The notes below the pieces were generated by a model that was given only the letters and a program-made list of their open reading frames with translations, did not search any database and was not told the origin of the DNA. Shown here piece by piece: positions 4,389 to 63,363 of a DNA stretch of 64,000 nucleotides. The stretch is from Haliclona indistincta. Lineage: Eukaryota; Porifera; Demospongiae; Haplosclerida; Chalinidae. The position numbers and the translations under genes were made by a program. The stretch is from assembly GCA_964017065.1 (NCBI GenBank), contig OZ024786.1, forward strand, positions 10,483,047 to 10,547,046, given 5' to 3'. Within the stretch, counting starts at the first letter, position 1. Every line of letters begins with the position of its first letter.

Positions 4389-5133
4389 TGCTGTCCGGTC
4401 TGGGCTACAAACAAGCCTTTATAGTGATTCTGCACGCGCGGGGCACGCGCGGGCATGTTCTGTATCATGAATATTAATTAGTTCGAAACCGCGTCCAAAA
4501 AAATAATTCGCCCTAACCGGAACCTTGTTACAAAGCTAACCGCCGGTATACGAGCCCCACCCATTTTCTCTCACGTGCGAAAAGCGACTAATGGAATGCA
4601 GGAGAAGGACTGATCGCGGACACAAACAAAACGGTCTAGAGCTAGCGTAGTATCGCTGTATCTATATGCTGAAGCTCTCTCTGTGCTTATTCTTAGTTGT
4701 GTATAACCTGAACAATGTCTGACAGTGAGTTACAATAACGTATATTTCATGCACATCATGATTTCGATCCTGTACACAGATATTCCAGCCCCAACCATCT
4801 TCCAGTTGACAACTGAATTGATAGACATGAAGGATTGGTATCCTCTAGGTGTTGCTTTGAGAATTAACCCCGATAAGCTACAAGAGATCCAGATATTGTC
4901 CCCACACGAGGGAATTCCACGATGGAGGATTGATTTGCTACAGTATTGGCTGAACTCAACACCTGATGCCTCGTGGAATGACATCATAGTCGCTTTGAAG
5001 ACAATCGGTCACCACACACTATCAGCTAAACTGAGAGAAAAATACATTTTGCCGTTAGCAGGTCAACAGGAGTCCTGCTCTACACAACCTGGACTTGCTA
5101 TTGTTCCATCCTCCACTGCTACTGCTGCTTCAG

Positions 5134-5620
5134 GTAAAGTATATAGCTTGCATTTTCCATAGCAGACATTTCAGGTGTATGATTATGATTATGAATACTG
5201 ACTTACACGAATATTATTATCCCTCAGTGTGGGCAGAGCCACGAGGCATTATTACTGTACTGGTCTGTCATTCGGTCCGTTATTTCATGTTACCAGTTGC
5301 ACACGCTGAAAGTTGAGCTTTGAAACTTCCAATGCTAGATAATTATTATTCTAAGTTTGAATATTTGTAACTTTTATACGAAGCTTTCCTCTCGAGTTAT
5401 GCCATGATTTGTGTTGCTGACGATATCTGAAGACTAAACTGCTTAAAATCTTTTGTTTTCATTACTTGTAGAATCATTGTGTAGTACAAGACAACATGGC
5501 AGGTCAAGAAAAGCATGCAATGTATAGCTATTCTGCATGAGTCATGGTTCTATGAATGCAAACTTGCCCCATACAGCTAATTACTAGTTATCTATCACAA
5601 AATGGGACCAAGTATCAGTG
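5134..5620. repeat. Intronic diverged copy of the GCCTCGGTGGGCGGAGCC repeat family
   Basis: GTGGGCAGAGCCACGAGGCAT near 5228 is followed by the same body words (GCACACGCTGAAAG, TTTATACGAAGCTT, GAGTTATGCC) seen at 6.1-8.0 kb. It is a decayed member lying in the first long intron of DD-SH2 copy 1. Confidence 0.6.
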
Positions 5621-10127: not shown

Positions 10128-13090
10128 CAACTCAGGTGATTGTATCAGAGAACTACAGAAGAGATTATGACGATATTCAAGGAAAGTTTGTATCACTATT
10201 CTATGAGGTCACTGAGCTATTCGAGAATGAAGAATCACTCACGATGAGTAAGCTGAAGAGATTTCTCTCCAAATACCCAAATCTAAGGGATCCACTGTGT
10301 AATGCTGACACAATTGCTGATGTCATGGACTTAATCCAAGAACAGTCATCATTCACCTGCTGCTCTTACCTGAAACACACAGCTACACGATTCAAGATTA
10401 CATCAGCTGTTGAGAGGATTAATGATTACTACAAGTCAGTGGATGAGTTCTGTCAACATGAACTGAGACATCACATCTATATGCAACCGTTTATCACAGC
10501 CAAGTCGATCAATATGACCAATTCTGGGATTATCTCATTTAAATTGCAATGGAGTACTGACTCAAAAACACTGTCCGATATTCAAAGTCTCTTGCGACAA
10601 GCTTTTGGGAAACAGAGTATCAACGTACATATCATGGTGGTCAGAGGAGGGAGTGTACGGGTAATCTGCTGTGCTCCACAATATCTAATGACCGAACTAG
10701 TGAGGCTAGCACAGAAGAACAGGGAGCTGCTGGTGGAGAGCAGTGTCACCTACCTTAGGGTAGGAGACGCTATAGTAGTGGACACCAGTGATCAGAGTGA
10801 GGTGAGGATATGTTATCATAGAAACTGTGTCACTTTAGATTTTGATCTTCAGATATCACTAGTGAAAGATCTTATACTTCAACTAACCATTGCACTTCAG
10901 TTGAAAGGTGAGTTGAAAGTAGATTTATTACTAAATACAAACATGCTGCTCTTGCTTCAAATCACAGACTTCTTGAGGGGACCTGATTCTCAAGGTATGG
11001 TAATACATTGTATGCGACTCAGTGTTGCAGTCATACTGTGCACATGGGTCATGAGTGTTTCCTACCCGCAGCAGCTGAGGATGTGATGAAGAGTATGACA
11101 CACTCCAGTGCTGTGAGTGATGGTGTTATTGTATAGTACATAATGGTTGTCAACATTCCCAGAATGAGCCCTCCAGCTCAATATGGCAGATCACATGGGA
11201 GGAGGCTGAGTATATCTTGACTTATAAACCAGATGGAACCTTTCTTGTTAATGAAAGAAAGGGGAAACTAGTTTCTGATCCATCATCATCATCAATCATC
11301 ACACATATCATGAGTATTGTGTAAGTAGTACATGTCACCATGATAACTGGTGTTTATTGTTTGTACAGTGTCAATGGGAGGGTTGAGGATGTAGGAATCT
11401 ACAAAAGAGGACACTACTATGGATTCCTCAATAATGAAAAATACACATCAGTTGAACACTTTGTAGCAATTCTCTCAAGAACAGGGTTTACTATTAAAAA
11501 AGGAGCAATATCAGTCACACTGACCAATCAACTATTTCCTGACAAGTGAGCTATCAGTAATGTTATTTGTGTTTATCACTTCTCACTATCTGCAGAGATA
11601 CTCTTGCCAACCTACCATCAGATATTCCCACTATCATACGAGTGAGTGTGTAAATTGTTCTTTTCCAATTACTCGATTTTTAGTATTTGCATTTTTGTGA
11701 ATGTAATTCCAAATTGAAGCTTGATTTTAGCTACGTGCCTACAATCAAGATGCCATACGAAAAAACTAATACCTGCAAGTACTGAGAGGCAAACGTTTAG
11801 AGAATGGTGTTGATTCAATGTGTAGTGGTATTGTCTTTTGTTACCCATGAGCAGTATGTGGGAGGGTTATGCATTTGAGTTTGTCTGCATACGTACGTAT
11901 ATTATGTGTGTCGTCAAAAAACATGCCTATTTGCGTCTTGTTTTTACTGCTTGGAAATCTCCATGAAAACACAGCTCTCTGTAGCTTTTTCACTGAATTT
12001 ATAGTCCTGTGTACTAGATATTAACAGTGCTGGCAAGCCTTCTATTCTATGGCTTTCTAAAGCTACGTGTCCTTGTAAGAGCACTTTACAGCATTGTGGG
12101 TGTGTCACCCAACCTCCTATATCCATCCATATTGACTTCCTGGTCTGCACTCAATCTCACATGTACCGTCATCAGGTGCTGTCCATGGACTGTTGCAGTA
12201 ATCCTGGAGTAGTGGTGTACTAACTATGTAGATCTTAGCTCAGCGCACGAGTATGTGTTCATTAGAAGTGTAGTTAAAAAATTTATAACTATAGTGTGTT
12301 TAGCTTCTGATAATAATCACTACATGTTATTTCACCTCCTCAGTATCACACATTCAGTGATGTGGCATCACTAATTCCCAAGCATTACCCTCACCATGAT
12401 GAGAGCACATGGCTCTGTAGACAGCTCAGTAAGGAGGAGTCAGAGAGGTTGCTGAGAGGGAGGATAGATGAGACATTCCTAGTGAGAGCAACTGACCTGT
12501 CAGGTCCCAGTCACCTCTTCACAGTGGATATTGTGTATGTAATAACAATAATTATTTTAATCTGATGCAAATACCATACTACATGATGCTGGCTTATCAT
12601 AATAATCGTATAATATTATAGAAATTTCAATTAGTCGAAATTTTGTCAGTGTTTGTATTGACATTAATACTCTATACAATATCATCACTGCATGTGTGTG
12701 TGTGTGTTAGTTGTTTGTTGTTCTTTAGGGTACAGAGGAAGGTGGTCAGTCTGTGTGTTTATAGAGATGGTGATTGGTTACATTTTGAAAGAGAAAGGGA
12801 AAGATATGACTCTATCAACACCATAGTGATGGATCGTCTCTCTGTAGTAGTTCGTATACCAATTGGTGATCATGTAGTACTAGTACATTTTCAATATCCA
12901 GTGCACTCATCAAAGTATTATAAATAATGTGCTTCTTTTTATGTTTGTCAAAAGTTTGGTTGAAAAGTTTGTTTTAACAAAATTACATTGTTCATTGTTC
13001 TAAGTAGATTGTACTCTGTAATTATCTGGTACAGTAATGAACAGTGAGTGTCTCATTCTAGCACCTACTGACCTTGAGAAGTGTCCTTTA

Positions 13091-13629: not shown

Positions 13630-13990
13630 TTACCTGCAATGGACGATACAGATGAAGAATGATAATAATTATTGCATTAACGAGCCCTGTAATATCTAGT
13701 AACAAAGTCACTAGGACCACGAAGAGATCAAGCTAGGGAGCGTGCAACACTGTATTTTCACAATACAATGGCGAAATCCAAACATGGCTGCCGTTTGACA
13801 CAGCTGGAAATCTGCTGTCTACCGCTGCTGGGGTATGTTGATTACTACTACTCTCAATAACATGTGCTGTGATCTGAAAGGTGACTAGGTGAGAGTTGTG
13901 AGACTAAACACAGGGCATAATCAACGCATTTCCTCCTTTTGGACCATGAAGACCTTTTTTGGATGATACTATATTTAGCATCAACATTTT

Positions 13991-14466: not shown

Positions 14467-14521
<55 letters not shown>

Positions 14522-15242: not shown

Positions 15243-15518
15243 ATGTCTCTAGACACTTCTCTGTTGTTTAGACCGATTTATCCCAAGATATTTGGTAAGC
15301 TAAAGTGTAGAACAATCTTTTTGTTTACAAGTTTTTAGTTCATCTTTCATCTGTTCGTGTTCTTTCTCGTGTAGGGCTAGGAGAGGTATTAGCAGCAGAA
15401 ATGAGGAAACGTATTATGGTAATGGATGGTGCTATGGGCACAATGATTCAGTCATACCATCTCACAGAAGAACAGTTCAGAGGTACCTTCCACCCACTCT
15501 ATCTTCACTTTCCATTTT

Positions 15519-19463: not shown

Positions 19464-19891
19464 CGCACGGGTATGTGTTCATTAGAACTCTAGTTTAAAA
19501 TTATGTAACTGTGATGTGTTTAGCTTCTGATAATAATCACTACATGTTATTTAACCTCCTCAGTATTACACATTCAGTGATGTGGCATCATTAGTTCCCA
19601 AGCATTACCCTCACCATAGTGAGAGCACATGGCTCTGCAGACAGCTCAGTAAGAAAGAGTCAGAGAGGTTGCTGAAAGGGAGAATAGATGAGACATTCCT
19701 AGTGAGAGCAACTCACCTGTCAAGTCACAGTCACCTCTTCACAGTGGATATTGTGTAAGTTAATGTACTACAATTTTTTTAATCTGACGCAGTGCCATAA
19801 TTGTCGCATGGTGCAAGTGCCATAATCGTAGTAATTTCAATCACTCAAAAATGTTTTCCAGTGTTTGAATTGACATTAATAATTTTTTATG

Positions 19892-21369
19892 TTCCGCGCT
19901 TTTTAGGAATTTGCGCATTCTCAAGAAAGCGCAGCGCCTTTTAGGAATCCCTAGAAAGCGCGGGCTTTCTCTAGAAAGCACTGCGCTTTCTCAAGAAAGC
20001 GCAGTCACAGAAAGCGCAACGGATACTGCGCTCTCTAAGGTTTACTCACGGCTCTTGTCACTCAAGAATCGGAACAAAATAGCTCTATACTACTATAGAT
20101 GTTATAATTTATGTTGGGTGAGTCTTTTGCCGAGTGTAATGGCCCATGGCAGCAACTCGTGCTAGCACTGGCGCTCTGATGATTTGAGCCTGAGCACCTG
20201 AGCGAGCATGCATGGTTGCACTATAGCTACTACCATTACCTATGCTGCTTTATTGTACCTAAGACCGTAGCATGCATGCCTGGGTATGCAATGCTACCTA
20301 GACTGCTACCTGTCTCTCATCATAGTGTGATGTACCCTGTCACAATTAATGCACAGGAATGCTGACAACATTTCTGCATCATGCATGGACACTGCATACA
20401 GTAGGCACAGTTGCATGCAGGTATAGCTGGAGTAAAACAACCCCAACACACTGAAAATTTAATAATTATGTGTCGTTGCCTCTCTTCAGAATGGTTACTG
20501 TAGGCTGTGGGAGCTAGGTAATAGCAGTGCTGCGCTAAGGTGGAACCATGCATGCTCGCTCAGGCTCATTGTGCTAGCTCCAGGCTCAAATCGTCAGAGC
20601 GCCAGCGCTAGCACGAGTTGCTGCCATGGGCCATTACACTCGGCAAAAGACTCACCCAACTTAAATTATAACATCTATAGTAGTATAGAGCTATTTTGTG
20701 GCGATTCTTGAGCGACGAGAGCCGTGCAACAACAGGAGTTGTACCATAGGAAGCCTTATTTTCAAAGGCACCGCCAGTGGTGTATTTCAGATATACCATG
20801 GAAAGTCACATGATTTCCTGTGGAATAACTAGATATTCCATGGTTTATCATGTGATTTTCTGTGGTATATCTGGATATTCCACGGGAAGTCACATGACTC
20901 CCACTGGGCAAAAAAGATAATAGAAATGATCTACCTTCCAGAAAGAAAAATAGGAAGGGGTGAGAGTTGCGAGTCAACCTCACCAGTAAACTATAAAGAG
21001 TGCGCAAGCCGCCCTTATTTATCCTATAGAAACCTACAGACATCAGTGGGCCTTGTGGTTGCCATGATACAAGTCAGTTATACCATGCCTACCTGTGGTG
21101 TATCATGAATACACTCAGCAATAACCATTAATCCCTCGGGCTACGCCCTCGGGATTAATAGTTATTGCTTCGTGTATTCGTGATACACCACGGGTAGGCA
21201 TGGTATAACATATACTTAAACCTTAGAAAGCGCAGTATCCGTTGCGCTTTCTGTGGCTTCGCTTTCTTGAGAAAGCGCAGTGCTTTCTAGAGAAAGCCTG
21301 CGCTTTCTAGGGATTCCTAAAAGGCGCTGCGCTTTCTCGAGAATGCACAAATTCCTAAAAAGCGCGGAA
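19892..21369. mobile_element. 1.48-kb element with about 150-bp terminal inverted repeats and nested inserts
   Basis: Left arm 19892-20043 and right arm 21217-21369 are inverted copies rich in the word GAAAGCGCAG and starting TTCCGCGCTTTTTAGGAATT. Inside are a second inverted pair (about 20043-20215 against 20545-20725, with CCATGGCAGCAACTCGTGCT) and a hairpin-rich block (20770-21210) of the family also found at 31122-31547. The host intron is uninterrupted in copies 1 and 4. The target duplication is unclear. Confidence 0.75.
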
Positions 21370-21863
21370 GAAATACACTATACATTATCATCACTGTGTG
21401 TGTGTGTTAGTTGTTTGTTGTTCTTTAGGGTACAGAGAAAGGTGGTCAGTCTGTGTGTTTATAGAGATGTTGATTGGTTAGATGTTGAAAGAAGAAGTGA
21501 AAGATACGACTCTATCAACACCATAGTGATTCATCATGCCGCTAGTACACTTTCTATACCAATTGGTGATCATGTAATACAAGTACTGTTTCGATATCCA
21601 GTGCACTCATCAAAGTATTATAAATAATGTGCTTCTTTTTCCGTTTGCCACGGTCAAATTTTGGGTTAAATTTTTTTAACCATTTGACATTGTTCATTGT
21701 TCTAAGTAGATGGTACTTTGTAATTTCTGGTACAGTAATGAACAGTGAGTGTCTCATTCTAGCACCTACTGACCTTGAGAAGTGTCCTTTACCTGCAATG
21801 GACGATACAGATGAAGAATAATTAATGTATTAACCAGCCCTGTAATATCTAGTAACAAAGTCA

Positions 21864-34000: not shown

Positions 34001-37000
34001 TTTCAGACTTCACTTGTGGAAGATCTTATTCTTCAATTAACTATTGTACTTCAGTCGAAAGGTAAAAGTATACATTAATTAATTATGATTAATTTAATAC
34101 TATTATAAATTCATTTCTCTCACAGACTGGTTGAGTGTACCTAAATCTCAAGGTATGTAAATATATCTGTGTTGCAGTCATACTGTGCACATGGGTCATG
34201 AGTGTTTCCTACCCACAGCAGCTGAGGATGTGATGAAGAGTATGACACACTCCAGTGTTGTGAGTGATGGTGTTACTGATGATGGTATAGTACATAATGG
34301 TTGTCAACATACCCAGTGTGAGCCCTCCAGCTCAATATGGCAGATCACAGAAGAGGAGGCTGAGTATATCTTGGCTTATAAACCAGATGGAACCTTTCTT
34401 GTCAGAGAGATGAGTGGGAAACCTGCTTCTGTTCTATCATCATCATCAATCATGACACATGTCATCAGTGTTGTGTGAGTAGTACATGTCACCATGGTAA
34501 CTGGTGTTTATTGTTTGTACAGTGTGAATGGAAGGGTTGAGCATATAGCAATCAACAAAAGAGGACTCCACTATGGATCACTCTATAATGAAAAATACAC
34601 ATCAGTTGAACAATATGTAGCAGTTCTCTCAAGAACAGAGTTTACTGTAACAAAGGCAGCAAGATCAGTTACACTGACCAATCGACTATTTCCTGACAAG
34701 TGAGCTATCAGTAATGTTGTTTGTATTTATCACTTCTCACTATCTGCAGAGATACTCTTGCTAACCTACCATCAGATATTCCCACTATCAGACAAGTGAG
34801 TGTGTAAATTGTACTTTTCCAACCACTCAATTTTAATATTTGTATTTTTGTGAATTTAGTTCCAAATTGAAGCTTGATTTTAGCTACGTACCTACTATCA
34901 AGATGCCGTATGAAAAAAACCAATACGTGCAAGCACTGAGAGGCAAACGTTTAGAGAAAACCTTTGTGCAGTATGTGGCAGGATTATGCACTTGAGTTTG
35001 TCTATGTACATACGTATACATGTCGTCAAAAAACATGCCTCTTTGCGTCTTACCGCTTGAAAATCTCCACGAAAACACTCTCTGCAGCTTTTTCACTGAA
35101 TTTATAGTCCTGTGAAGACGTTTTCAGTGCTGGCAAGCCTTGCTTGAGCGGCGAATCCATGCCTTTCTAAAGCTACGTGTCCTTGTAAGAGCACTTTACG
35201 GTATGGTGGGTGTGTCATTCAATATATCCATCCATATTGACGTCCTGGCCTGCACTCAATCTCACAAGTACCGTCATCAGGTGCTGTCTATGGACTGTTG
35301 CAGTAATGCTGGAGTAGTCGTGTACTAACTGTGCAGTTCTTAGCTCAGCGCGCGGGTATGTGTTTATTGGAATTCTAGTTAAAAAATGTGTAACACTAGT
35401 GTGTTTACTGTTTGGTAATAATCACTAAATGTTATTTAACCTCCTCAGTATTACACATTCAGTGATGTGGCATCACTTCCCAAGCGTTACCCTCACCATG
35501 ATGAGAGCACATGGCTCTGCAGACAGCTCAGTAAGGAGGAGTCAGAGAGGTTGCTGAGAAGGAGAATAGATGAGACATTCCTAGTGAGGGCAACTGACCT
35601 GTCAGGTCCCAGTCACCTCTTCACAGTGGATATTGTGTAAGTCAATGTAATAACAATAATTAGTTTAATCTAATGCAAATGCCATACTGCATGGTGCGAG
35701 CTTATCATTAAATAATTATTGTAGTCATTTCAATTAGTCAAAGTTTTGTCAGTGTTTGAATTGACATTAACCCTTTAACCCTTAATGTCGCCTTTTGGCG
35801 ACATACATACTTCAGACACCATAACTTTATCAAAAAGTGTTAAAATATCCCAAAATTAAGCCAAATTGAAGAATACAAATAACCGCCAAAAATTGACCGG
35901 TTTTCGGCGCGCCCCCTGCGCTAAACGTTATGGCGACTGCATTTCTATGGCTTCAGTGCAAATTTCACAACATTTTAGGGAAAACAAAATGGCTGCCAAG
36001 AAAATTGGGACATTTTATGGCTTCAGGGTGCTCGGAAACACATTTTTGGACATTCTCTATGATCTGGGCTACATTTTGCACTCACCAAAGCCACTGCTAT
36101 TTGTGTGTACTTTTCAGCAGCCAGCCCCAAAGTACTAACTTTGAGCAAAATTTGACGAGGTCGTTGCACTTTATCGGCTTCACTTTCGAAGTGGGAGGGG
36201 CATATTGACCGACTTGAGTGTGGGCAATTGCGGCTACTCACTGGGGTAAAAGGACGCATATTTGAGACCAGTAGCTCAAAAGACACACGAGATATTCACG
36301 AGAGAAGTGGTCAGCATTTACGAGGTTAAAATTTCAGCTGGATAATTTAGTAATTAAAGGGTTAACCCTTTAGGGCCTAATGATGCCTTTAGGCATCATA
36401 ATTGACTCCACCTACTCTAGACGTCATAAATAGTGTGAAAAGTGAAGGTCAAATCAAGTTTAATTGCAAAAGATGACTTTACCTGAAAAAATCACTTTTT
36501 TTGGCGCGCCCTCCCCACTAAAACGTACAGAATGGGGGAATTTTAAAGGGGGGTGTTCCCCCCGTTAACCTGGGGTTCGAAGGGGCAGAGCCCCTCTCCA
36601 CTTTTGGCATTTTAAAGGCTTCAGGATGCCCGGAAATGCATACTTGGGCATAGAATATGGTTTAAACTATGCTGTTTGCTCACCTGGACACCACCAGGTT
36701 TTTGTATCAGTCACCAGGGCTAAACGAAGACCAGAACTGGCTGAATAAAGCACCAAAGGTGCAGATGCATCGGTCAATAGCATGTATGCTAGCATGCAAT
36801 TATCAGATGCATATGACAGCATGTATACGCGCAGTAGATCCATGGAAGCATCAAAACAGTATCATAGAAGCATGCAAGCAGCAGAACTATGGAAGCATAC
36901 AAGCAGCAGAACCATGGTAGCATGTAAGCTGCAGAACTGAAGTATGCAAGCAGCAGAACTATGGTTGCATGCAAGCAGCAGAACCATGGATTGTAGCAGT

Positions 37001-46981: not shown

Positions 46982-49900
46982 ATGTCTGACAGTGAGTTGT
47001 ATAAGTATTATGTAGTACTGTTATTATCGTCATACTGTCAGATATCCCAGTACCAACCATCTACCAGTTGACAGAGGAGCTGCACTCGATGAGTGATTGG
47101 TACGCTCTGGGTGTGGCTTTGAAAGTGCCTCCCAGTAAACTAAAAGAGATCAGGCAATCTGCTCCGCAAGAGGGAATACAATATTGGAGAATTGAATTAC
47201 TACAGTAGTGGCTTGACTCAACACCTGATGCCTCGTGGAGCATGATTATAGCAGCTTTGGAAAAAATTGGTCATCACACACTGTCAACTAGACTGAGAGA
47301 CAACTACATTATACCAGTAACAGGTGCATGCAGATTGATTTGTGTCAATAGGTGATTATGTTATTTTATTTTTTACAGGTCAGCAAGACTGCTCTAGGTC
47401 TACCAATACAACTACTACTACAGCTCCTGGTAACTATATACATGGTTTCAAAAGTAGTTATTAACTTATTAATGCGACCGGCAAATTGTAATTCACGTGT
47501 AAGTTACACCTATATTTTGGTGGGCAAGCTGTCAGTTCTACTCACCACGAAGCGAAAAGCGGAGTTAGTTGCTGACCAATCAAATTCACTGCTAGTCACG
47601 TGTATTAAACCATCTACACATTCACGACTACTTCCGCTTTTCGTACGTGGTGCAAGGTCTCTGCACTGGTCATGTCTCTGCATCTCTGCATACCTCTGTT
47701 TCGGTCGTGACTCCAGAGATGCAAAATAGTCACTCAAATACATTTTTCACTCTTCTGCCCACCAAGGGAGGCGTGGCTGGTGATGCAGCCCAGAGTGACA
47801 CGTGCTCAATTATTATTTTGGAACCATGTATACAGCATGAAAATTGTCCTGTAGTGTTTACTATTAGTATGAATGGCTGTAAGTATTATAGATGCTCTTG
47901 GTGCAATCATCGCTGAATTATTATTGAGCAGTTACACCCATGTTACACCTATAGTTGCACCCATTTTGGGGCAGAAATAGGTGGGGCCACATGTGGTAAG
48001 ATGGTGGGTCCACCTATTTTCATGCTCGTGTTTGCTATTCTGCACAGCTCTCACTTGCGTAATAGCGCCAGCGTTTAATTCTTCCTAATAATTATCTGCT
48101 GTAGTTCTGAGATCTACATTTGTAAGCCTATAGCAACCAGCCCAAAAAGTGCAAAAACTTTCACGAAAACTATCATCTGTTGTGATATTTCGCTTTCACC
48201 CAGCTCTACTATAACAAATTTGAAAACAGAGTCAATAATTAATGAAACTGACGTTATTGTTGTATAGTTATACTTTGTATAGGAAATAGCTGTCAAGTGG
48301 CATCTGGCTATGAGAGAAACTGTTAGTTTTAAAAACTGGCTTTGCTTGCCACTAATAAGGCCATGCAAAGTAGATTGTCAGTTATCGTCAGCAACAAAAT
48401 GGGAAAGGATAGTGGGAGGGAGGTCATTCATTATTTTTCAGAAAACAGGTCATAATGAGAAGGAAAATGAAAAACTGGAAAAGATGCATGATATTGCAGA
48501 TGGTAGCTTGGCTAGTTAAACGCATTTCGAAGAAGAGCAACCTATGATTGCGAGCAATCTGTTTCAATGTAACTGTACAAGAACTTGATGTAGGAGCCAA
48601 ACCACTAACATACTACGAATGTACATACGCAAGTAGCTCATCCATAACACTCATGCCTTCTTTAAAATGCCCATCAAAACTTTCTGGAGTGACGAACGAG
48701 CCAAAAGTTTGTCGACTTGGAGCTTTGTACGTCCTTCTAGAATATTCTCGAATAAACCCACAAAGGTTATGCCATCTGGCACTTGAATCACTGTCGTCGC
48801 AGTGGTAATGATGGGCGGAGACTGTTATTTTGTTAATGTTGAACCAGTATGCTGGTAGTTTTCGTACATGCAGGTTACTTTCCATGGCCTACCTTTATGC
48901 TCAGTTTAGGCATTCTTTGTTAATATCATAAAATGCGCAAATGTTACTATCACTATCACGATGGTGAAAACATTCATGAGTGTGATAATTTCAATACTTT
49001 TGCTCAGCCCTGGAGTTTAGTACATTAGTGTGGTGCTTGTATGGTGCAGAGCATAATTGTAACCTAGTTTGGGACAGCTAGCATACTTTTTGTAGTAGAA
49101 ACTTGTATTGTCGAATAAATAATACAGTAACTAAAGGGTTAACAATGTACATTCAATTCTTGACGTGTTTTATTTGATGCACGAATCATACAGTTACAAC
49201 TGCTTCTGTTATTGTGCCTGGAAAGTATCGAAGAGATTTTGAAGATATACAAAATAAATTTGCTCGACTCTTTGTTGAAGTCACTGAGATATTGGAAAAA
49301 GAAAAATCAGTCAACATAAAGCGTCTCAGAGGATATGTGTCCAAATTTCCAGAGATGAATGATTCACTTGATAATGCTCGCACTATCTCAGACATCATTA
49401 ATATCATTCATAGACACTCATCTCTCACATCTTGCTCACATCTCAAAGGAGTTGCTGATCTATTTGGTGTCTCTGCTGCCATCGAAAAAATTGAAAAGTA
49501 TTATGAATTCGTTGACAATTTTTGTCAATACAAATTGACTAATCACATCTACATGAAGCAATTCTTTACTGTCAAGTCAATAGATGTAACACCTTCTACA
49601 ACCATCACTTTCAAATTAAGATGGCGTCCAAATGATAAGACTCTGTCCGATATACTAGAGCTTCTCCAACAAGCCTTCGATGATCAGTGTGTCTATGTCC
49701 ACATCATGGTAGTTAGAGGAGGGAGTGTACGGGTAATCTGCTGTGCTCCACAGAATCTAATGACCGAACTAGTGAGGCTAGCACAAAAGAACAGGGAGCT
49801 GCTGGTGGAGAGCAGTGTCACCTACCTTAGGGTAGGAGACACTATAGTAGTGGACACCAGTGATCAGAATGAGGTGAGGATATGTTATCATAAAATCTGT

Positions 49901-52322
49901 GTTACTTTAGATTTTCATCATCAGATATCACTTGTGCGAGATCTTGTCCTTCAACTAACCATTGCACTTCAGCTGAAAGGTGAGCAGAATGCAGACTATA
50001 TACAATCATATAATATTGCTCTTCAAACACCAGACTCCAAGCACAGGTTGAGTGGACCTGATTCTCAAGGTATGTTAATACTATGTGCCTGATCTATTGC
50101 AGTCATATAATATTATTACATACACATGCATGCGCCATAATATGTTTCCTACCCACAGCAGCTGAGGATGTGATGAAGAGTATGACACACTCCAGTGCTG
50201 TGAGTGATGGTGTTACTGATGATGGTATAGTACGTAATGGTTGTCAACATACCCAGAGTGAGCCCTCCAGCTCAATATGGCAGATCACAATAGAGGAGGC
50301 TGAGTATATCTTGGCTTATAAACCAGATGGAACCTTTCTTGTTAGAGCGGTTATTGGGAAACCTGTTTCTGATCCATCATCATATTCAATTAATACACAT
50401 GCTATCAATGTCGTGTGAGTTAGTACTATCTTACCTCATGCTATTGGTCAATACTGTGTGTCAATACAGTGTCAATGGACGGGTAAGGAATGCACTGATC
50501 TACAGAAGAGGAAGCTACTATGGATCACTCAATAATGAGAAGTATACATCAATTGAACACTTTGTGACTGATCTATCAAGAAAAGGGTTTACTCTTGATG
50601 AAGGAGCAACATCAGTTACACTGACCAATCCACTTTTTCCTGACAAGTGAGCTATCAGTAATGTTGTTTGTGTTTATCACTTCTCACTATCTGCAGAGAT
50701 ACTCTTGCTAACCTACCATCAGATATTCCTACTGTCATACCAGTGAGTGTTTGGATTTATGAATTTTCAACCACAATGTTGATTTTGTAAATTCATAGCT
50801 TTATTATGGTCACGTAGCAAGTGAAAAGCTGTATTGGAGTTGACAAAAACTAGAAAGTGTATAGGGATGATATGTTTGCAAGAATAATGACAGAGCAAGT
50901 GCCGTAACCCTCGCCGAGGGTTAAAACAAGTCTTGAATTAACACTTGCAAAGTTAACCAAAGCTAGTATCTAGCATATTAATAGCTTGCACATGTAAATG
51001 ATCATCTGTTCAAACTGCCCCAGGTCTGCACTCGATCCTTATAACTTTGAATTACTTGTTAACTTTCTGTTCCTTTATCACTTTAAACATTTTTCAGCTT
51101 CATCAAAAGTACATTTAACATAATTATTATGAAAAATCGCCTGATGCTGAAATTGTGAGAGACGGTGAAGATCTGGAATGGGTTTTCGTGAGATACACTA
51201 TCATGACTTATGACGATGATTAAGTGATGTCGGCGACGGACTTTTTCCTAGCGCTTGCATGAGCACATGACTTCAGTAAAGTTTAGATGGTTAAAACCAG
51301 CCAGTTAATTTGCAGACTTAATTATAGTTTTTTTTTGCATATCAGACTCATTTTCAATGCATGATTGGTATGCATTCTTAAATACACTAGATGTCATGTT
51401 TCACTTGTGTTAATTAACTAGTAGTATAGCTATCAATTTTCTAGTATTGTGTGGTATGTACACTGATTAAATAATGGTACCACTGATGTTGTTTCTCAGC
51501 ATTACACATTCAGTGATGTGGCATCACTTCCCAAGCATTACCCTCACCACGATCAAAGCACATGGCTCTGCAGACAGCTCAGTAAGGAGGAGTCAGAGAG
51601 GTTGCTGAGAGGGAGGATAGATGAGACTTTCCTAGTGAGAGCAACTGACCTGTCAGGTCCCAGTCACCTCTTCACAGTGGATATTGTGTAAGTCAATGTA
51701 TACATGCAATAGCAGCAATTATTGTTACTTCCTGTCCGGCATCAAAGGCACTGCCCAGACTTTAATCTCCGTATTTTCACGAGCGTAATATTGAACAGTC
51801 AATGACTTTTATACGTACTACACGTGCGCCACTAACACGAGTCACCCAAGTGTTTGATAGAAGGAACGATAATCATTTAATGTTAGTGAGTCGTGCTTTA
51901 TGTGATTTATGGAATTTGGGTCATGGTCTCATGTCATTAATCGTGCAAAGCACTTTTTCTCAACATTAAGTAATACATATTGACACAGATGTTGTATAGC
52001 ATAGTGAAAGCGTATCATATACATGCAGGTAATTTTAATTGTGTTAAGCAATCAGTAGTTTAAATCGACCAATTTGTTTTCTCTACGCTACAGTACATTT
52101 TTCTTTTTTTTCTGTTTTAGGGTACAGAAGAAAGTTGTCAGTCTGTGTGTTTATAGAGATGGTGATTGGTTACGAATTGAAGGAATGAGAGAAAGATATG
52201 ACTCTATCAACACATTAGTGATGCATCATGTCATCGCAGCATCATATATACTAATTGATGATCATGAAATACTAGTATATTTTCGATATCCTGTGCATAC
52301 ATCTAAGTACCATTATAAGTAA
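46982..52322 (+). pseudogene. DD-SH2 copy 3, with a nonsense codon in the death domain
   Basis: Predicted exons: 46982-46991, 47042-47323, 47379-47429, 49194-49873, 49925-49979, 50034-50069, 50159-50414, 50470-50646, 50697-50742, 51500-51687, 52121-52322. Phases close to a stop (about 660 codons), but codon 59 is TAG (47206-47208), where copies 1 and 4 have Tyr in LLQYWLN. This is the most diverged copy: its linker is short (SRSTNTTTTAPG) and the first two thirds of the unknown domain differ strongly (KYRRDFEDIQNKFARLF), while the last third is almost identical to the others. SH2-a (DGTFLVRAVIG) and SH2-b (DETFLVRATD) keep their FLVR arginines. It may still give a protein by internal initiation or readthrough, or the TAG may be an allele or an assembly error. 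Confidence 0.8.
47430..49193. other. Long intron of DD-SH2 copy 3
   Basis: No recognised gene. The right end (TAAAGGGTTAAC at 49134-49143) looks like the end of another TTAA/piggyBac-like element, but the matching left end was not found. A 90-residue minus frame at 48613-48885 is unassigned. Confidence 0.4.
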
Positions 52323-53291
52323 TTTTTTGTAATGATGTATCAAATTTAATGTTTCATTTGACAATGGCTCTAACTACTTGGTACATTGTCACTGCATGTG
52401 TAGCTATTAAATTTTGTTTAAACCATGTTACAAAACAATAGTAATGATCATGATTTAGATCAAACTACTAGCTCTTACAGTAAATGAGTTTATAACGTCT
52501 ACATGTGTGTTAATTGCTACAAATAAATCTGTTTTTTCACACCAAGTCTCACTTGCTTCTATAGCCCTAAGCATCACAGTGTTTGACACACATAAGACTC
52601 ATGAAATACTGTCGAAAGATATAGAGGTCAATTGATTGTGTCACATCCCAAAAAGTTCACTTGTGCATAAGAATGTGCATGGGGAAAGCCTAAAAATCTT
52701 CTGATGAGGGGTTTCTCTCCTGTTGTAGCTCCTGGTAAGTAGCACACTCTTGATAATATGCATCTCCTTAATTCATGCAACATGGTGTCTCATCAGCTCA
52801 CAACAATGGTATTATTATTATTTGCCATTAGTGGTGACAGGCTGTAGACATCCCTGTTCAATTCGTCTAGTTTGTATTCAGTGTATTGCGATGTGTGGCA
52901 GCTAGACTTAGGAAGTGTCCTGCATGGTACTACCATACAAATTAAAGCTATATATCAGGAGATACTAGTGGTATACTTGAGGTTTAGAGTCACAAAGATC
53001 CTGTGAAACAAGTAAAAGTATATGGCTCTGCGTGTAACATGATCTGTAGTATTGCATAGAAATTAATATTGATTAATTTATTTTGGTTTATTAGGCTTTT
53101 GATTTTCAAACATGATTGAGTGGCTGCTACACAACATTAACTTTTAGCAATACACATAAATGTAAAATGTGAATTCACAACACTTTTGTACCCAAAATAA
53201 TGCATCTACTCATCCGATCTACTGTAGCTTTACTGTGATGGTTGAAAGACTAATATTGTTAGTGCTCATGAGTTGTGTTTCCTGTCCACAG

Positions 53292-54635
53292 TTACTGAAG
53301 AGGATGTGACAAGCTCAAGTGTAAGTTGTGACTGATGGTGCTACTGATTGAGAGGAAGGATAGATGAGACATTCCTAGTGAGAGCAACTGACCTGTCAGG
53401 TCCCAGTAACCTCTTTACAGTGGATATTGTGTATGTAGTTAGAATATTGCATCATGAGTAGATATTATTATGTTTAAACTGTTGATCCTTAGAGTATACA
53501 GAAGAAAGTTGTTAGTTTGGGTGTTCATAAAGATGGTGATTGGTTGCGACTCAAAGGTGTTCGAGAAAGATATGACTCTATCAATACTTTGGTAATGCGA
53601 CGCGTCACAGCAGCAGTTCCTATACCAATTGTTGACAACACAGTACTAACATATATTTTCAATATCCAGTGAACTCAATGACATGAAGAACATCATGCAC
53701 ACATCAGCAAGTGCAATTCTTTTAATTAGCTATACGGTATCCGAACTCAATATCATCTGTTTCACTTTGAGTAGTAGCAATAAGTTTTCTATTAAAATCC
53801 ATATGCATGCTTCATAATTTCTATCTCGTTATTAAATTTTTTAATAACTGAAGGAGATCCACAGATAATTCAGGACCGCTCTAATGCAAGTAATTTTCCA
53901 ATAGTGCTTTTGTTCGGCATAAGGCGGCAACAACTCATCAGGTCATTGTGTCACACGTCATGATCAATGAGAGCACAGTGTGTTTGTGATCTGTGCTATT
54001 GTAAAGATACGGCAACGACAGTGAGCAGAATAATGTGTCTTTGGACGTGCACAATTCACCACAAGGTGAAATATCAGCATTTGAATGCTAATACATTGCA
54101 TTGTAGCTGCTATTTTGTTCTTCATCTATTCCTACATAGGGACGCCCTACCGTACTTCCCTGCGTACTTCACTCTGAGTAGTGCACGTGTATGCACCTTC
54201 TAAAAAATTAATTTGGTAATTTTTTCATTAAAATCAGTAAATTTAACTTAAAATTTATCAATTGAAAGCTCATTTTTTGGTATAATCTCATTAACATTCA
54301 TACAATGATGTGTTTCGAAGTTGTTCTTGTGTAGTAAAATATCGATAATTATTTGAAATTAAAATTTACAGTATCCAATGCACTCATCAAAGTATATGTA
54401 TTCCAATAGACTATTCCGTTGTAATGATATAAATCATAACATTGATGTTTTCTTTTATAATGTGTCAGCGAGTCAATGACATGGTTCAAGTACTTATTTA
54501 GTAGCACAATTGTAACCATCTGTTAAAGTCTGTCAGTGTCTCATTCTAGCACCTACTGACCTTGAGAAGTGTCTTTTACCTACAGTGGGTGATACAGATG
54601 AAGAATATACATGTACTTACCTGCAATGCAGGTAG
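53292..54635 (+). pseudogene. Degenerate duplicate of the SH2-b end of DD-SH2 copy 3
   Basis: Pieces in order: VTEEDVTSSS-like (53292), a 5'-truncated SH2-b exon (53351-53433, RIDETFLVRATDLSGPSNLF), a second SH2-b exon (about 53493-53672, KKVVSLGVHKDGDWLRLKG) with a small insertion that shifts frame before the end, and, after about 0.9 kb of unrelated sequence, the C-terminal exon (about 54537-54635, LILAPTDLEKCLLP). It matches copy 3 (QKKVVSL, LR.G.RERYD) best, so it is a decayed local duplication. The acceptor half of the first SH2-b exon is lost. Confidence 0.72.
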
Positions 54636-57915: not shown

Positions 57916-60900
57916 ATGTCTGACAGTGAGTTACAACAGAGATGATTAATTACCACGTAACCAGGATAAGATACTGTCAATCAAAATGTATTGCAGGAGA
58001 CCCGGTACCCAAGCGTGTTTCGCATTTCGTCAAAGAACCACCAAGAACGCGTAGATACGGAGTTTGTATGAACGCTTGCTCGCTTTAGCACTTACTCTTG
58101 CGACGTTTTTCTTCACTACTACTGTCTCCTAGTCGAAGACTGTCTAGGTTGACAAGGGTGAATCTGTGTGCCGCGTCGGTGGCGATGTAAATAATAGTTG
58201 ACTTCATAAGATGCCTGTTGCAGTTCCTGCCTAGTTTATTGTAAAGTTCGAGTACTGGTGGTGTAAATATATACATTTTATGCTTCTTGGTAGCTTTGGA
58301 TTCGCACCAGAGACGGTTGAAGCCATTTCTTGGTCCTGCTTTTGTGAAAACAACCGTACAAAAATTATCTGTTGGCTTGGTGTTCGTTTTCACAGTATCT
58401 TTTGTTAGGTGGATTGTTGCATTATGTAAATATCATAATTTAAACTCTGTAACTTGTCTATAGCCACTGTCAGTTTTTTAACGAAAAAAACTCACGGTGT
58501 AGACGCTGAGTCGATTGTGGACTCCTGTAACACCAGATTGTCACAGTTTCTGATCCCGGTTACGTTGTATTTAGTAATCAATGGTTACAAAAAGGTACGC
58601 TTTTCTCGTGAATGCAGCATATGTTCCGTGTCGTTTTGATTCTGAACGTATTTATTTAGTGTGCATGAGTAAACCCGCTGTATCATGTTGTCACTATGTG
58701 TACATGGTCTTACCTTGAACCTTCCATCATTATCTATGTCCACAATGATTTATTGTACACAGACGTTCAAGCCCCAACCATCTTCCAGTTGACAACTGAA
58801 TTAAAAAGCATGAACGATTGGTATTCTCTGGGTGTGGCTTTGAGAGTTCATCCCAATAAGCTACAAGAGATCCAGAAATCGTCCCCACAGGAGGGAATAC
58901 AACGATGGAGGATTGATTTACTCCAGTATTGGCTGAACTCAACACCTGATGCCTCGTGGAATGATATCATAGTCGCTCTAGAGAGTATCAATCACCAAAC
59001 GCTGTCAGTTACGTTGAGAGACAAATACATCTTACCAGTAACAGGTATACAGTGTGTCTAGTGGCTAGCCTAGCTTTTGATCAGGCTTGTATTGTATTAG
59101 TTTCTCTTCTTCGTTACTACCTCTCTCTAATATGATTGAGTGTCTATGAATGATATAAATGATGGTGTAAGTTAGCCTCATACCCAGACCTTTTTCGATG
59201 AAGGCCTGGATATGGTACATAATTTTTTTGCCAATCGAGTGTTTCACCATTTTTGTGAGTTTATTCTCATGGACATGTCCTGACAGCAAACCAACGCAAT
59301 GCATTTCCCAAGATTCGTGTTTTATATAATTATTCGTTTTTAAAGTAAAAACTGCGTAAAATGTGAAAATTTGGTCTCACGAAAGTTACCCAATATACGG
59401 TATGCTTTTTTGGACAGCTTTGGGTATTTTCTATATCATAAGTTTTCACAGCATAAACACACCAGCTAGATTACACTCTTGGTGTATTTGACAAAATCAT
59501 GTTTGTTTGTGCATGTACATGTACTAGTGATACAATTTTATTATCATGCACAGGTAATAGTTAATGAATGGCTCCGCGTGTAACATTGGATTTGTACGCA
59601 CGAGCTTCCGGTCTCGTTGTAAAAATAGACTACTCTGGCTATGCCCTCGTGGTCTATTTTTAACGAGACCGGAAGCGAGTGCGGACAAATCCAATGTTAC
59701 ACAAGGAGCCACGCATTAATTGTTTTGTTATTACTCTTTCAAATTCCCACTAGCGTAAGCGTGCATGCTCATTTTGCATATAAGGTGCACACTGAAGAGC
59801 TCATCACCTTCCGGTAGGGCATGCGCGTTAGCTAAATAGTTGGCAATGCAGGCACTACTGTCCTGCTGTGCGCCATGAGATTTATTCATGGTTGCCTCCA
59901 GACCCATGAGTGGTACAATACAGTTGTACCACTCTTAGCTCCCAGTGCATACATCTGCATGTATTGGGAATTTGCCATGTAACAAATCATTTGTTACACT
60001 CATGGGCGGGTCACATAGCCAGGAATTAATGGAACAACCGATTTGTTCCACTGGCGGTCCCTTTGAAGAAAGGGTGGAGTATATAACAATTGGATTAATC
60101 CTTAGGTGTACAAGATTGTTCTACTGCATCAGCTACACACCTAACATCTACTATAGCAACAACTGACACTTCAGTATCAGCTACTAGCTCTACTGCTATT
60201 ACTCATGGTACGTTGTTCATCATTTCTTGTCAATCCTCTTCAACTGTGCACAATATCAATCCATTAAAAATTGTATGCAAAAAATCATGTATCATGTTTA
60301 AGGATAAAGGATTTGTATGTGTACAGTACGTTTATTATTTCTTACTTGTATATCTCAGCTCACGTATTCCTATACATGCAAGCTGTTAGCCATGGACCCT
60401 TTCAAACTGCAAAGTCTCTATTGTATTGCAACTATATGGAGAGAAAGTTATGGCTGCCTTTCGTCTATTTTTTTTCAGACACGAGCCCGGAGTGTGTTGC
60501 AATGCAGTCAGTCTCCTTTTCACAGCAGCTAGCCTGAGTTTAATGTTTGCTTGCGCGCCCATACGTGGATAAGGTTCTTGACTAGTTTTGGCCAAACAGT
60601 GACTGGTAGAGGCGGGCCGGTTAGGCACGAGAGATTGTGGCTGAATGTGATGTGCACGTGATGCTTGTGCATGTGCGAACGCTGGCTGCAGCCAACATTA
60701 ACCATGATTACACAACGTGCAACCAACATTAGTCCAGAGGGGGCTTAGTTGAGATATTTTGGTTTTTGTATTCTGTTGGCAAAATATAGGCGAGAAACAG
60801 ATCAAAAAATATTGAGTCTTGAACTCCAGATTGACGCCCATCGAAAGCAAGTCGTACTTCTACAAAGTTTCAACAAAGCCCCCTCCGCCCTTGTCTTGCT

Positions 60901-63363
60901 GTATCCATGGATATGGCTGTACGTTTCTAGAGTCTTTATACCAGAGTGCTGTTTGTAAGCGTCTTTTACTGAATGGGTGTGGTTAGGGTGCACATGTGAG
61001 CATTAGCATGCTATATCATTTTATCCGACATGAATGAGCATTTCTGATTAAAGCAACTCAGGTGATTGTATCAGAGAGCTACAGAAGAGATTATGATGAT
61101 ATTCAAGGAAAGTTTGTATCACTATTCTATGAGGTCACTGAGCTATTCGAGAATGAAGAATCACTCACGATGAGTAAGCTAAAAAGATTTCTCTCCAAAT
61201 ACCCCAATCTAAGGGATCCACTGTGTAATGCTGACACGATTGCTAATGTCATGGACGTAATCCAAGAACAGTCATCATTCACCTGCTGCTCTTACCTGAA
61301 ACATGCTGCCTCACAATTCAAGATTACATCAGCTGTTGAGAAGATTAATGATTACTACAAGTCAGTGGATGAGTTCTGTCAACATGAGCTGAGACATCAC
61401 ATCTATATGCAACCGTTTATTACAGCCAAGTCAATCAATATGACCAATTCTGGCATTATTTCATTTAAATTGCAATGGAGTCCTGACTCAAAAACACTGT
61501 CTGACATTCAAAGTCTCTTGCGACAAGCCTTTGAGAAGCAGAGTATCTACATACACATCGTGGTGGTTAGAGGAGGGAGTGTACAGGTAGTCTGCTGTGC
61601 TCCACAGTATCTAATGACCGAACTAGTGAGGCTAGCACAGAAGAACAGAGAGCTACTGGTGGAGAGCAGTGTCACCTACCTTAGGGTAGGAGACACTATA
61701 GTAGTGGACACCAGTGATCAGAATAAGGTGAGGATATGTTATCATAGAAACTGTGTCACATGCATGTGTTCAAATTTGATTTAATTTCAGACTTCACTTG
61801 TGGAAGATCTTATTCTTCAACTAACCATTGTACTTCAATTGAAAGGTAAAAGTAGACATTGAATATGATTAATTTTGATACTAGTACAAATTCATTTCGC
61901 TGACTGACTTGTTGAATGGACCTGAATCTCAAGGTATGACAATAAATTATATCTGTTTTGCTGTCATACTGAGCACATGGATCATGAGTGTTTCCTAACC
62001 ACATGCAGCAGCTGAGGATGTGATGAAGAGTATGACACACTCCAGTGCTGTGAGTGATGGTGTTACTGATGATGGTATACTACATAATGGTTGTCAACAT
62101 ACCCAGAGTGAGCCCTCCAGCTCAATATGGCAGATCACAAGAGATCAGGCTGAGTATATCTTGACTTATAAACCAGATGGAACCTTTCTTGTTAGAGAAA
62201 GAAAGGGGAAACCTGTTTCTGATCTATCATCATCATCAATCAGCACACATCTCATCTATGTTGTGTGAGTAGTACTTACATGTCACCATGGTAACTGGTG
62301 TTTATTGTTTGCAGTGTCAATGGGAAGGTTGAGAATTTACCAATCTACAAAAGAGGACAGGACTATGGATTCCTTGATGATGAAGAATGCACAACAGTTG
62401 AACACTTTGTAGCAGTTTTCTCAAGAACAGGGTTTACTATGAATGAAGGAATGACATCAGTTACACTGACCAATCAACTATTTCCTGACAAGTGAGCTAT
62501 CAGTAATGTTGTTTGTGTTTGTCATTTCTTACAATGCAGAGATACTCTTGCTAACCTACCATCAGATATTCCCACTATCATACGAGTGAGTGTGTAAATT
62601 GTTCTTTCCAATCACTCAATTTTATTATTTGCATAGATTTTAGCTCAGCGCACGGGTATGTGTTCATTAGAACTCTAATTTAATTTTGTAGCTGTAGTTT
62701 GCAGTTTAACTTCTGACAATTTAACCTCCTCAGTATTACACATTCAGTGATGTGGCATCCTTAGTTCCCAAGCATTACCCTCACCATGATGAGAGCACAT
62801 GGCTCTGCAGACAGCTCAGTAAGGAGGATTCAGAGAGGTTGCTGAGAGGGAGGATAGATGAGACATTCCTAGTGAGAGCAACTGACATGTCAGGTCCCAG
62901 TCACCTCTTCACATTGGATATTGTGTAAGTCAATGTAATACAATAATTATTTATTGTTTATTATTATCTGATGCAAATGCCATGCAGTAGGCATGGCATT
63001 TGCATCAGATTAAAATATTTATTGCATGGCATGGTATTATATTATTATACTACTCGTATAGTATTATTAATTAGTCAAAACTTTTGTCGGTGTTTGAATT
63101 GACATTAATGCACTATACATTATCATCACTGTGCGTTCGTGCGTGTGTTTGTGTGTGTTAGTTGTTTGTTGTTCTTTAGGGTACAGAGGAAGGTGGTCAG
63201 TCTGTGTGTTTATAGAGATGGTGGTTGGTTACGAGTTGAAAGATCAAGGGAAAGATATGACTCTATCAACACCTTAGTGATTCATCATCTCACTACTACA
63301 GTTCCTATAACAATTGATGATCAGATAGTACTAGTACTTTTTCAATATCCAGTGCACTCATAA
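57916..63363 (+). CDS. DD-SH2 copy 4: intact death domain / unknown domain / tandem SH2 protein
   Basis: Predicted exons: 57916-57925, 58763-59044, 60106-60207, 61054-61727, 61791-61845, 62009-62264, 62315-62491, 62540-62585, 62734-62924, 63180-63363. Every junction is GT/AG and phases sum to 658 codons plus stop. Order: MSDN plus death domain (about 5-100; DWYSLGVALRV, WRIDLLQYWLN, ASWNDIIVAL), Ser/Thr-rich linker (100-130), unknown domain (132-370), SH2-a (about 410-525; IWQITRDQAEYIL, DGTFLVRER) resembling the PI3K p85 C-terminal SH2, and SH2-b (about 535-655; WLCRQLSKEDSERLL, DETFLVRATD). Both FLVR arginines are present. The 27-bp exon used in copies 1 and 2 has lost its AG (61906) and should be skipped without frame change. 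It ends at a TAA in the last SH2 exon, before the splice used in copies 1 and 2. This is the best model for the family. Confidence 0.8.
58085..58393 (-). other. Unassigned open frame in intron 1 of DD-SH2 copy 4
   Basis: A 102-residue minus-strand frame (KMYIFTPPVLELYNKLGRNC, IYIATDAAHRFTLVNLDSLR, SSSEEKRRKSKC) with protein-like composition and no repeats. Homology unknown; it may be part of an old inserted element. No splice partners found. Confidence 0.3.
59551..60090. mobile_element. Insertion shared with copy 2 (GTAATAGTTAATG family), shorter form
   Basis: Starts GTAATAGTTAATGAATGGCT and ends GGAGTATATAACAA, as at 30131-31713, but without the two later inserts. The first part (59560-59725) is a long hairpin with arms TAACATTGGATTTGTACGCA and GCGGACAAATCCAATGTTAC and GACCGGAAG near the loop. 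Confidence 0.72.

What the first reader, a model, noticed from the sequence alone, without database searches (positions are those of the whole stretch)
4715..63363. Tandem family of death-domain plus double-SH2 proteins
Four gene-length copies and one partial copy share the order death domain, Ser/Thr linker, unknown domain, SH2-a, SH2-b. I know of no vertebrate protein that combines a death domain with two SH2 domains. SH2 reads phosphotyrosine and death domains nucleate assemblies, so this could be a direct tyrosine-kinase-to-death-fold adaptor, plausibly in immunity or allorecognition. The family expands and decays locally like an immune gene cluster. This is the best candidate here for an undescribed system.
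Basis: partly seen in the sequence, partly recalled or inferred. Interest (0 to 1): 0.9.

Follow-up and report, generated by a model that had tools for sequence, protein, structure and literature searches.

The report
Diversifying death-domain double-SH2 gene family
The window holds part of a tandem family of about 65 animal (probably sponge) genes that join cell-death signalling domains to two SH2 domains, and the parts of the SH2 domains that choose a binding partner have changed unusually fast, as in immune recognition genes.

Summary
Copy E (58763-63363) splices at GT/AG sites into a 635-residue frame: death domain, Ser/Thr linker, the "unknown" exon, SH2-a, SH2-b. The unknown exon is predicted to fold as a death-effector-like bundle plus an RRM/ACT-type domain with the turn motif of TRADD-N. 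In the whole genome 64 chains hold TN-SH2a-SH2b complete, 62 on one contig (shuffled labels: at most 2). The class is in print: Kaur et al. 2021 report death-like + TRADD-N proteins, some with SH2, in the sponge Amphimedon (passages). Apparently new: in SH2-b's second exon dN exceeds dS (omega 1.63, 61 copies); at sites chosen in one half of the copies, omega in the other half is 2.6-2.8. These sites align with the SH2 specificity pocket. SH2-b keeps its phosphotyrosine pocket in 22 of 22 copies tested; SH2-a varies even there (FLVR arginine in 14 of 31). Function and ligands are inferred.

The parts
58763..59044 (+). copy E, death-domain exon
60106..60207 (+). copy E, Ser/Thr-rich linker exon
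   Evidence: AG/GT bounds, phase 1/1
61054..61727 (+). copy E, 'unknown' exon = DED-like bundle + TRADD-N-like domain
61791..61845 (+). copy E, mini-exon after a 63-base intron
   Evidence: AG/GT bounds, frame kept; in 22 of 35 copies the short intron could also be read through in frame
62009..62264 (+). copy E, SH2-a first exon (alpha A, FLVR strand, beta C)
   Evidence: splice bounds; spliced SH2-a Pfam 31.9 bits
62315..62491 (+). copy E, SH2-a second exon (beta D to BG loop)
   Evidence: splice bounds
62748..62924 (+). copy E, SH2-b first exon (phosphotyrosine pocket, FLVR)
   Evidence: splice bounds; spliced SH2-b Pfam 23.2 bits
63180..63363 (+). copy E, SH2-b second exon and stop; hypervariable across the family
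   Evidence: splice bounds; omega 1.63 over 61 copies
4714..4723 (+). copy A, probable first exon (start codon, phase 1 donor)
   Evidence: sequence read; inference
4782..5063 (+). copy A, death-domain exon (core)
10151..10801 (+). copy A, DED-like + TRADD-N exon (core)
11050..11546 (+). copy A, SH2-a exons (approximate start); frameshift near 11128, Asn in place of FLVR Arg
12359..12927 (+). copy A, SH2-b exons
19579..21627 (+). partial copy B: SH2-b exons only (19579-19755, 21430-21627)
33286..38640 (+). copy C: DED-like+TRADD-N 33286-33936, SH2-a 34218-34700, SH2-b 35464-35637 and 38443-38640; no DD found; linker exon split by an insert (about 31799-32368)
47044..47325 (+). copy D, death-domain exon with in-frame TAG
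49223..52322 (+). copy D: DED-like+TRADD-N 49223-49873, SH2-a 50158-50647, SH2-b 51515-51688 and 52122-52322
53255..53677 (+). scrap of a further SH2-b

Best explanation
This is a lineage-specific, tandemly expanded family of about 65 genes for intracellular adaptors: N-terminal death domain, Ser/Thr linker, DED-like domain, TRADD-N-like domain, then two SH2 domains of the PI3K-p85 type. Proposed mechanism: SH2-b docks on phosphotyrosine with a fixed pocket and a copy-specific specificity surface; SH2-a adds a second, freely varying contact that in more than half of the copies is not canonical phosphotyrosine binding. Docking clusters the protein, and the death-fold domains nucleate a signalling assembly (caspase, NF-kB-type or other). 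Shown by computation here: gene structure, predicted folds, family size, conservation of the SH2-b pocket and excess amino-acid change on the SH2 ligand side. Inferred: that the ligands are phosphotyrosine proteins, that the driver is pathogens or non-self, and that the output is cell death or inflammation.
For: One gene: phase-consistent GT/AG model of 635 codons, near-invariant splice sites, 64 complete chains against at most 2 in 1000 label shuffles. Domains: DD fold, DED2-like fold, SH2 by Pfam, p85-alpha C-SH2 as closest PDB chain for both (E 1e-14; 4e-9). Selection: SH2-b second exon whole-exon omega 1.63, 2dL 23.6 against omega=1; M2a over M1a 2dL 238.6 (SH2-b2, 61 copies), 55.1 (SH2-a2, 33), 101.5 (SH2-a1, 31), and 0 for SH2-b1 (22), TRADD-N part (35) and DED-like part (35). 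Held-out omega 2.79 [1.76-4.77] and 2.57 [1.59-4.38]. Selected sites align where a review puts the specificity pocket (alpha B, beta G, BG and EF loops; PMC7530234 passages). SH2-b positions aA2 K, bB5 R and bB7 T are 22 of 22. An artificial DED-SH2 or DED-PTB chimera is cited as redirecting tyrosine-kinase signalling to apoptosis (PMC2575513 passage).
Against: No transcript, protein or binding data. Copy E's start exon was not found. 27 of 66 chains lack a detected DD (DD hits are lower bounds). Site-model tests are inflated by wrong trees: with shuffled labels the TRADD-N control reached 2dL 32.9, so gene conversion could inflate them; the held-out pairwise counts use no tree in the test step. 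Random site sets of the same size from the same exon reached the held-out omega in 112 and 204 of 4000 draws (means 1.58 and 1.49): the whole exon is fast. As whole exons, SH2-a1 has omega 0.76, below 1 (2dL 4.6), and SH2-a2 1.15, not different from 1. In the 440 SH2-b2 pairs with pS of 0.2 or more, pN exceeds pS in 44% of 408 and none of 32. SH2-b1 is a weak control (few changes). The death domain also shows a mild signal (2dL 12.6, 16 copies). One of two divergent C7 relatives has Thr at the SH2-b FLVR position.
Confidence: 0.6

Rival explanations
1. Recent duplicates under relaxed constraint: the SH2 specificity halves vary because nothing selects them.
For: In the window two of four copies have a stop or frameshift and a third lacks the DD; 4 of 18 fully recovered chains have a stop (recovery as single hits favours intact copies). 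The remaining sites of the SH2-b second exon have omega near 1 (1.03 and 0.91).
Against: Relaxation gives omega up to 1, not 2.6-2.8 with intervals above 1. 61 of 62 SH2-b second exons are open with the same framework residues.
Confidence: 0.12
2. Gene conversion among tandem copies homogenises most of the 3' half and leaves unconverted patches, imitating selection.
For: Synonymous distance falls along the gene: DED-like part 1.19, TRADD-N part 0.30, SH2 exons 0.07-0.17. Selected codons also have higher pS (0.17-0.19 versus 0.10-0.12 in the held-out sets). Wrong trees raise the site-model statistic.
Against: Conversion lowers dN and dS together and does not by itself make dN exceed dS. Controls in the same genes give 2dL 0 on their own trees. 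It probably acts together with selection.
Confidence: 0.18
3. Kinase-network adaptors tuned to the animal's own receptors (development or allorecognition), not pathogen defence.
For: The SH2 pair is p85-like; large self-nonself gene families also diversify (general knowledge).
Against: Death-fold plus TRADD-N is the module that Kaur et al. tie to counter-invader systems (passages). No evidence here separates the two.
Confidence: 0.25
4. Separate genes: DD/TRADD-N genes interleaved with SH2-SH2 genes.
For: No cDNA; the DD lies up to 13.5 kb upstream of TN in some chains (chaining cap 14 kb; median 2.3 kb), and 27 of 66 chains have none.
Against: Matching phases and a 635-codon frame; 64 complete chains against at most 2 by shuffling; homologues P0002 and P0003 whose unspliced open frame runs from TRADD-N into SH2-a.
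Confidence: 0.04

Closest known systems
TRADD-N proteins of the NCOA6 clade expanded in the sponge Amphimedon (Kaur, Iyer, Burroughs, Aravind 2021)
   Same: Death-like domains, then TRADD-N, then a variable C-terminus that may include SH2; hundreds of copies (357 reported) (passages)
   Different: In the passages seen, SH2 is named once in a list. Double p85-type SH2, the single large tandem array and the selection pattern are not in those passages. PF13820 did not match these exons
TRADD and FADD (vertebrate adaptors)
   Same: Death-fold adaptor logic; TRADD-N next to a death-fold domain; DD plus DED as in FADD
   Different: No SH2; the DD of TRADD is C-terminal (PMC8195603 passage); FADD has no TRADD-N (recalled)
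PI3K p85 regulatory subunits
   Same: Best sequence match for both SH2 domains
   Different: Both SH2s match the C-terminal SH2; they are about 17 residues apart in copy E, which leaves no room for the inter-SH2 coiled coil (recalled)
Tandem-SH2 immune protein ZAP-70
   Same: Two adjacent SH2 domains used for double recognition (PMC7530234 passage)
   Different: It carries a kinase and no death fold
Engineered DED-SH2 / DED-PTB chimeras
   Same: Same logic: tyrosine-kinase input, death-fold output (cited in a PMC2575513 passage)
   Different: Artificial; here a natural, multiplied family

Membership tests
Death domain | six-helix death fold | tested here: met
Death domain | Pfam PF00531 over curated cut-off | tested here: inconclusive
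   20.8 and 22.2 bits, E 4e-4 and 1.5e-4, 18.7 in the whole protein, cut-off 22.6; C7 relatives 24.8, 24.5 and 45.6
Death effector domain | death-fold bundle of DED type | tested here: met
Death effector domain | DED signature residues (RxDL, recalled) | not tested
   no call
TRADD-N (Kaur et al. 2021) | RRM-like beta-alpha-beta-beta-alpha-beta fold | tested here: met
   E134-139 H148-165 E167-172 E176-181 H184-196 (H198-203) E206-211, predicted
TRADD-N (Kaur et al. 2021) | tiny residue + Ser in the beta2-beta3 turn | tested here: met
   G174 invariant and S175 at 90% or more of 46 rows; the two exceptions among the rows printed have Cys
TRADD-N (Kaur et al. 2021) | sequence or structure match to NCOA6/TRADD TRADD-N | tested here: inconclusive
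   PF13820: one candidate in the genome, elsewhere, under cut-off; not among the 25 of 56 families printed for 46 members; TRADD N-domain 1f2h at Foldseek rank 24, E 0.55, prob 0.30
TRADD-N (Kaur et al. 2021) | death-like domains N-terminal, variable C-terminus | tested here: met
   DD and DED-like domain before, SH2-SH2 after
SH2 | Pfam PF00017 over cut-off | tested here: met
   6 of 8 spliced domains over 21 bits; misses 19.8 (an SH2-a with Trp at FLVR) and 15.4 (C7 relative); copy E 44.6 bits in 2 stretches
SH2 (canonical phosphotyrosine reader) | FLVR arginine at bB5, SH2-b | tested here: met
   22 of 22 distinct exons of the array; Thr in one of two C7 relatives
SH2 (canonical phosphotyrosine reader) | FLVR arginine at bB5, SH2-a | tested here: not met
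   R in 14 of 31, W 12, S 2, Q, F, C 1 each; so SH2-a as a class is not filed as a canonical reader
PI3K p85 regulatory subunit | inter-SH2 coiled coil that binds p110 | tested here: not met
   about 17 residues between the SH2 domains in copy E

The most novel reading that the evidence does not exclude
A germline repertoire of intracellular immune receptors in which the SH2 domain itself is the variable recognition domain: SH2-b is a fixed phosphotyrosine anchor with hypervariable specificity loops, and SH2-a is an evolving binding site whose phosphate pocket is among its fastest-changing parts, both wired to a death-fold/TRADD-N trigger. It would sense tyrosine-phosphorylated non-self or hijacked proteins by sequence.
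Probability: 0.4. Interest if true: 0.92.

Novelty: new variant of a known kind. Interest (0 to 1): 0.8.

Why it matters
SH2 domains are textbook conserved readers: the FLVR arginine is reported conserved in all but 3 of more than 120 human SH2 domains (PMC7530234 passage). A family of about 65 natural death-fold/SH2 genes whose ligand-facing residues change faster than silent sites would be a natural counterpart of an engineered kinase-to-death switch, a new kind of variable immune recognition module, and a ready-made library for learning how SH2 loops set specificity.

Tried and rejected
Whole-genome search with Pfam SH2 gave 90 hits, none of them in this array, because an intron splits each SH2; exon queries solved that. 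The stretch after ...DTSDQNE (VRICYHRNC...) looked coding in protein hits, but of 35 copies (of 39) where its end could be located, 10 have a length not divisible by 3 and 7 have an in-frame stop, and a GT donor precedes it in 39 of 39. I treat it as a micro-intron; in 22 of 35 it could be retained in frame. PF13820 search for TRADD-N: no match at these exons. Profile search of A1 against PDB sequences: none. hmmscan of 10 distant homologues: no TRADD-N. TRADD is not among the VIA rows printed. A profile search for distant relatives returned 108 unnamed proteins, so other species could not be compared. A split of SH2-b2 codons into specificity positions and the rest gave 2.26 versus 0.96, but I drew it after seeing the selected sites, so I do not count it. 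Binning pairs by pS favours pN over pS in low bins and the reverse in high bins, so I do not count that either. I did not hand spliced SH2 domains to the folding tool, because it accepts only contiguous translations; SH2 positions were assigned by alignment to p85 and to Src numbering that I recalled. The codon models are my own implementation with fixed FastTree branch proportions, not PAML/HyPhy. Papers: PMC8195603, PMC7530234, PMC9783222 and PMC2575513 seen as passages only; other titles as search listings with abstract starts. The statement that no paper describes SH2 diversification in this family rests on the paper searches in the open PMC library.
Full report
What was checked. The window is C4:10483047-10547046 of a 144-Mb genome in 46 contigs. 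Exon searches inside the window found death-domain (DD) exons at 4782-5063, 47044-47325 and 58765-59046, an "unknown" exon (called TN) at 10151, 33286, 49223 and 61077, and two-exon SH2-a and SH2-b pairs behind each TN; SH2-b pieces also lie at 19.6-21.6 kb and 53.3-53.7 kb. All hits at E 0.01 or better were on the + strand.

Gene structure. TN donor GT in 39 of 39 fetched exons; SH2-a1 donor 32 of 32, acceptor 30 of 32; SH2-a2 acceptor and donor 36 of 36; SH2-b1 acceptor and donor 23 of 23; SH2-b2 acceptor 22 of 22, and 39 of 40 further copies; the DD acceptor is AG at the expected place in 12 of 19. Phases chain correctly. Copy E splices from 58763 to 63363 into 635 codons without an internal stop, with AG and GT at every internal junction. 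Its first exon was not found; copy A shows a plausible short one at 4714-4723. D has a stop inside the DD, A a frameshift in SH2-a, C no DD and a linker exon split by an insert. Of 18 fetched chains with all five downstream exons recovered as single hits, 14 are free of stops; of the 12 that also have the DD, 9 are. Recovery as single hits favours intact copies.

Family size. Searching the whole genome with copy E's exons gave 96 TN, 74 SH2-a1, 72 SH2-a2, 77 SH2-b1 and 77 SH2-b2 hits, and 150 scored DD hits out of 740 candidates. I chained 96, 70, 71, 77, 77 and 49 of these by position and strand (gap up to 14 kb, cut where order breaks). 66 chains hold four or more exon kinds; 64 hold all of TN-SH2a1-SH2a2-SH2b1-SH2b2, 37 of them with a DD in front, 62 on C4 (8.82-11.02 Mb), one on C2 and one on C39. 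With exon labels shuffled within each contig strand 1000 times, complete chains averaged 0.075 with a maximum of 2. TN exons also occur on C5, C6, C9 and C10, where none of the SH2 exon searches hit. On C7 (9.50-9.53 Mb) there are divergent relatives: L061 has two death domains over Pfam's cut-off, SH2-a (read by eye) and SH2-b; L060 a death domain and SH2-a; L062 SH2-b; no TN hit there.

Evolution. Pairwise dN/dS per exon: DED-like part 0.24, TRADD-N part 0.31, SH2-a1 0.71, SH2-a2 1.21 (95% 0.88-1.65), SH2-b1 0.46, SH2-b2 1.43 (1.01-2.01). One-ratio codon model: SH2-b2 omega 1.63, better than omega=1 by 2dL 23.6; SH2-a2 1.15, not distinguishable from 1; SH2-a1 0.76, below 1 (2dL 4.6); SH2-b1 0.70, not distinguishable. 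Site models: M2a beats M1a by 238.6 (SH2-b2, 61 copies, 30% of sites at omega 4.6), 55.1 (SH2-a2, 33 copies) and 101.5 (SH2-a1, 31 copies), and by 0 for SH2-b1 (22), TRADD-N part (35) and DED-like part (35); DD 12.6 (16 copies). Wrong trees inflate this test: with labels shuffled, the TRADD-N control reaches 32.9 and SH2-b2 469.7. I therefore chose SH2-b2 sites in one genomic block and counted in the other: omega 2.79 (1.76-4.77) and 2.57 (1.59-4.38), other sites 1.03 and 0.91. Random site sets of the same size from the same exon averaged 1.58 and 1.49 and reached the observed value in 112 and 204 of 4000 draws, so the whole exon is fast and the chosen sites are the faster part. Over all 1830 SH2-b2 pairs pN exceeds pS in 82%, but not among the 440 pairs with pS of 0.2 or more (44% of 408, 0 of 32); pairs are not independent.

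Where the changes are. In SH2-b the selected codons (copy E 63202, 63232, 63235, 63244, 63283-63306, 63310, 63325, 63331, 63337, 63343) align with beta D5, beta E, the EF loop, the end of helix B, the BG loop and alternate residues of strand G. [quoted passage not shown] Lys at aA2, Arg at bB5 and Thr at bB7 of SH2-b are 22 of 22. In SH2-a the selected codons include aA2, bB5, bB7, bD3 and bD6: bB5 is R 14, W 12, S 2, Q 1, F 1, C 1 of 31; aA2 shows 13 different residues in 31. Position names come from alignment to p85 and from Src numbering that I recalled. Synonymous distance falls along the gene from 1.19 (DED-like part) to 0.07 (SH2-b1), which I read as gene conversion homogenising the 3' part while SH2 surfaces keep diverging.

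How it probably works. SH2-b anchors the protein to a phosphotyrosine site with copy-specific sequence preference; SH2-a adds a second variable contact; clustering brings the DD and DED-like domains together, which in known proteins seeds assemblies that recruit effectors; TRADD-N would act as the switch between the two halves, as Kaur et al. propose for other TRADD-N proteins (passages). An engineered DED-SH2 adaptor is cited as turning tyrosine-kinase signalling into apoptosis (PMC2575513 passage). The ligands, the driver of selection and the output are inferred.

Novelty. Only one paper in the open library holds both "TRADD-N" and "SH2": Kaur et al., who list SH2 among C-terminal domains of Amphimedon's 357 TRADD-N proteins. 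The class is therefore known; the double-SH2 array and the diversifying change on SH2 binding surfaces appear new (paper searches). The supplementary tables of that paper were not open to me and may list this architecture.

Noticed in passing
window 2026-3030 (+): Open frame with Pfam DUF5641 (68 bits), probably the end of a retrotransposon polyprotein (the Pao/BEL label is recalled); described only.
   Followed up: no
window 13630-17322 and 38799-43411: About 87-93% identical blocks downstream of copies A and C; the first carries a homocysteine S-methyltransferase exon (Pfam S-methyl_trans 24.4 bits at 15858). The duplication unit is larger than the death-domain/SH2 gene.
   Followed up: partly
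window 45608-46449: 424-base segment in two tandem copies, 99.8% identical: a very recent duplication.
   Followed up: no
L060-L062 (contig C7 9.50-9.53 Mb): Divergent relatives: death domain(s), SH2-a with Trp at the FLVR position, SH2-b; no TRADD-N exon found between. May show the older architecture.
   Followed up: partly
G000 C4:10.923-10.932 and 10.988-10.997 Mb: Pairs of family hits with equal scores spaced 64,990 bases apart: a recent segmental duplication or an assembly duplicate.
   Followed up: no
G000, death-domain search: 740 candidate death-domain exons (150 scored) for one query: death-fold genes in general look greatly expanded in this genome.
   Followed up: no
P0069: By eye, an open frame with the DED-like + TRADD-N pair followed by what looks like a second, diverged RRM-like unit.
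   Followed up: no
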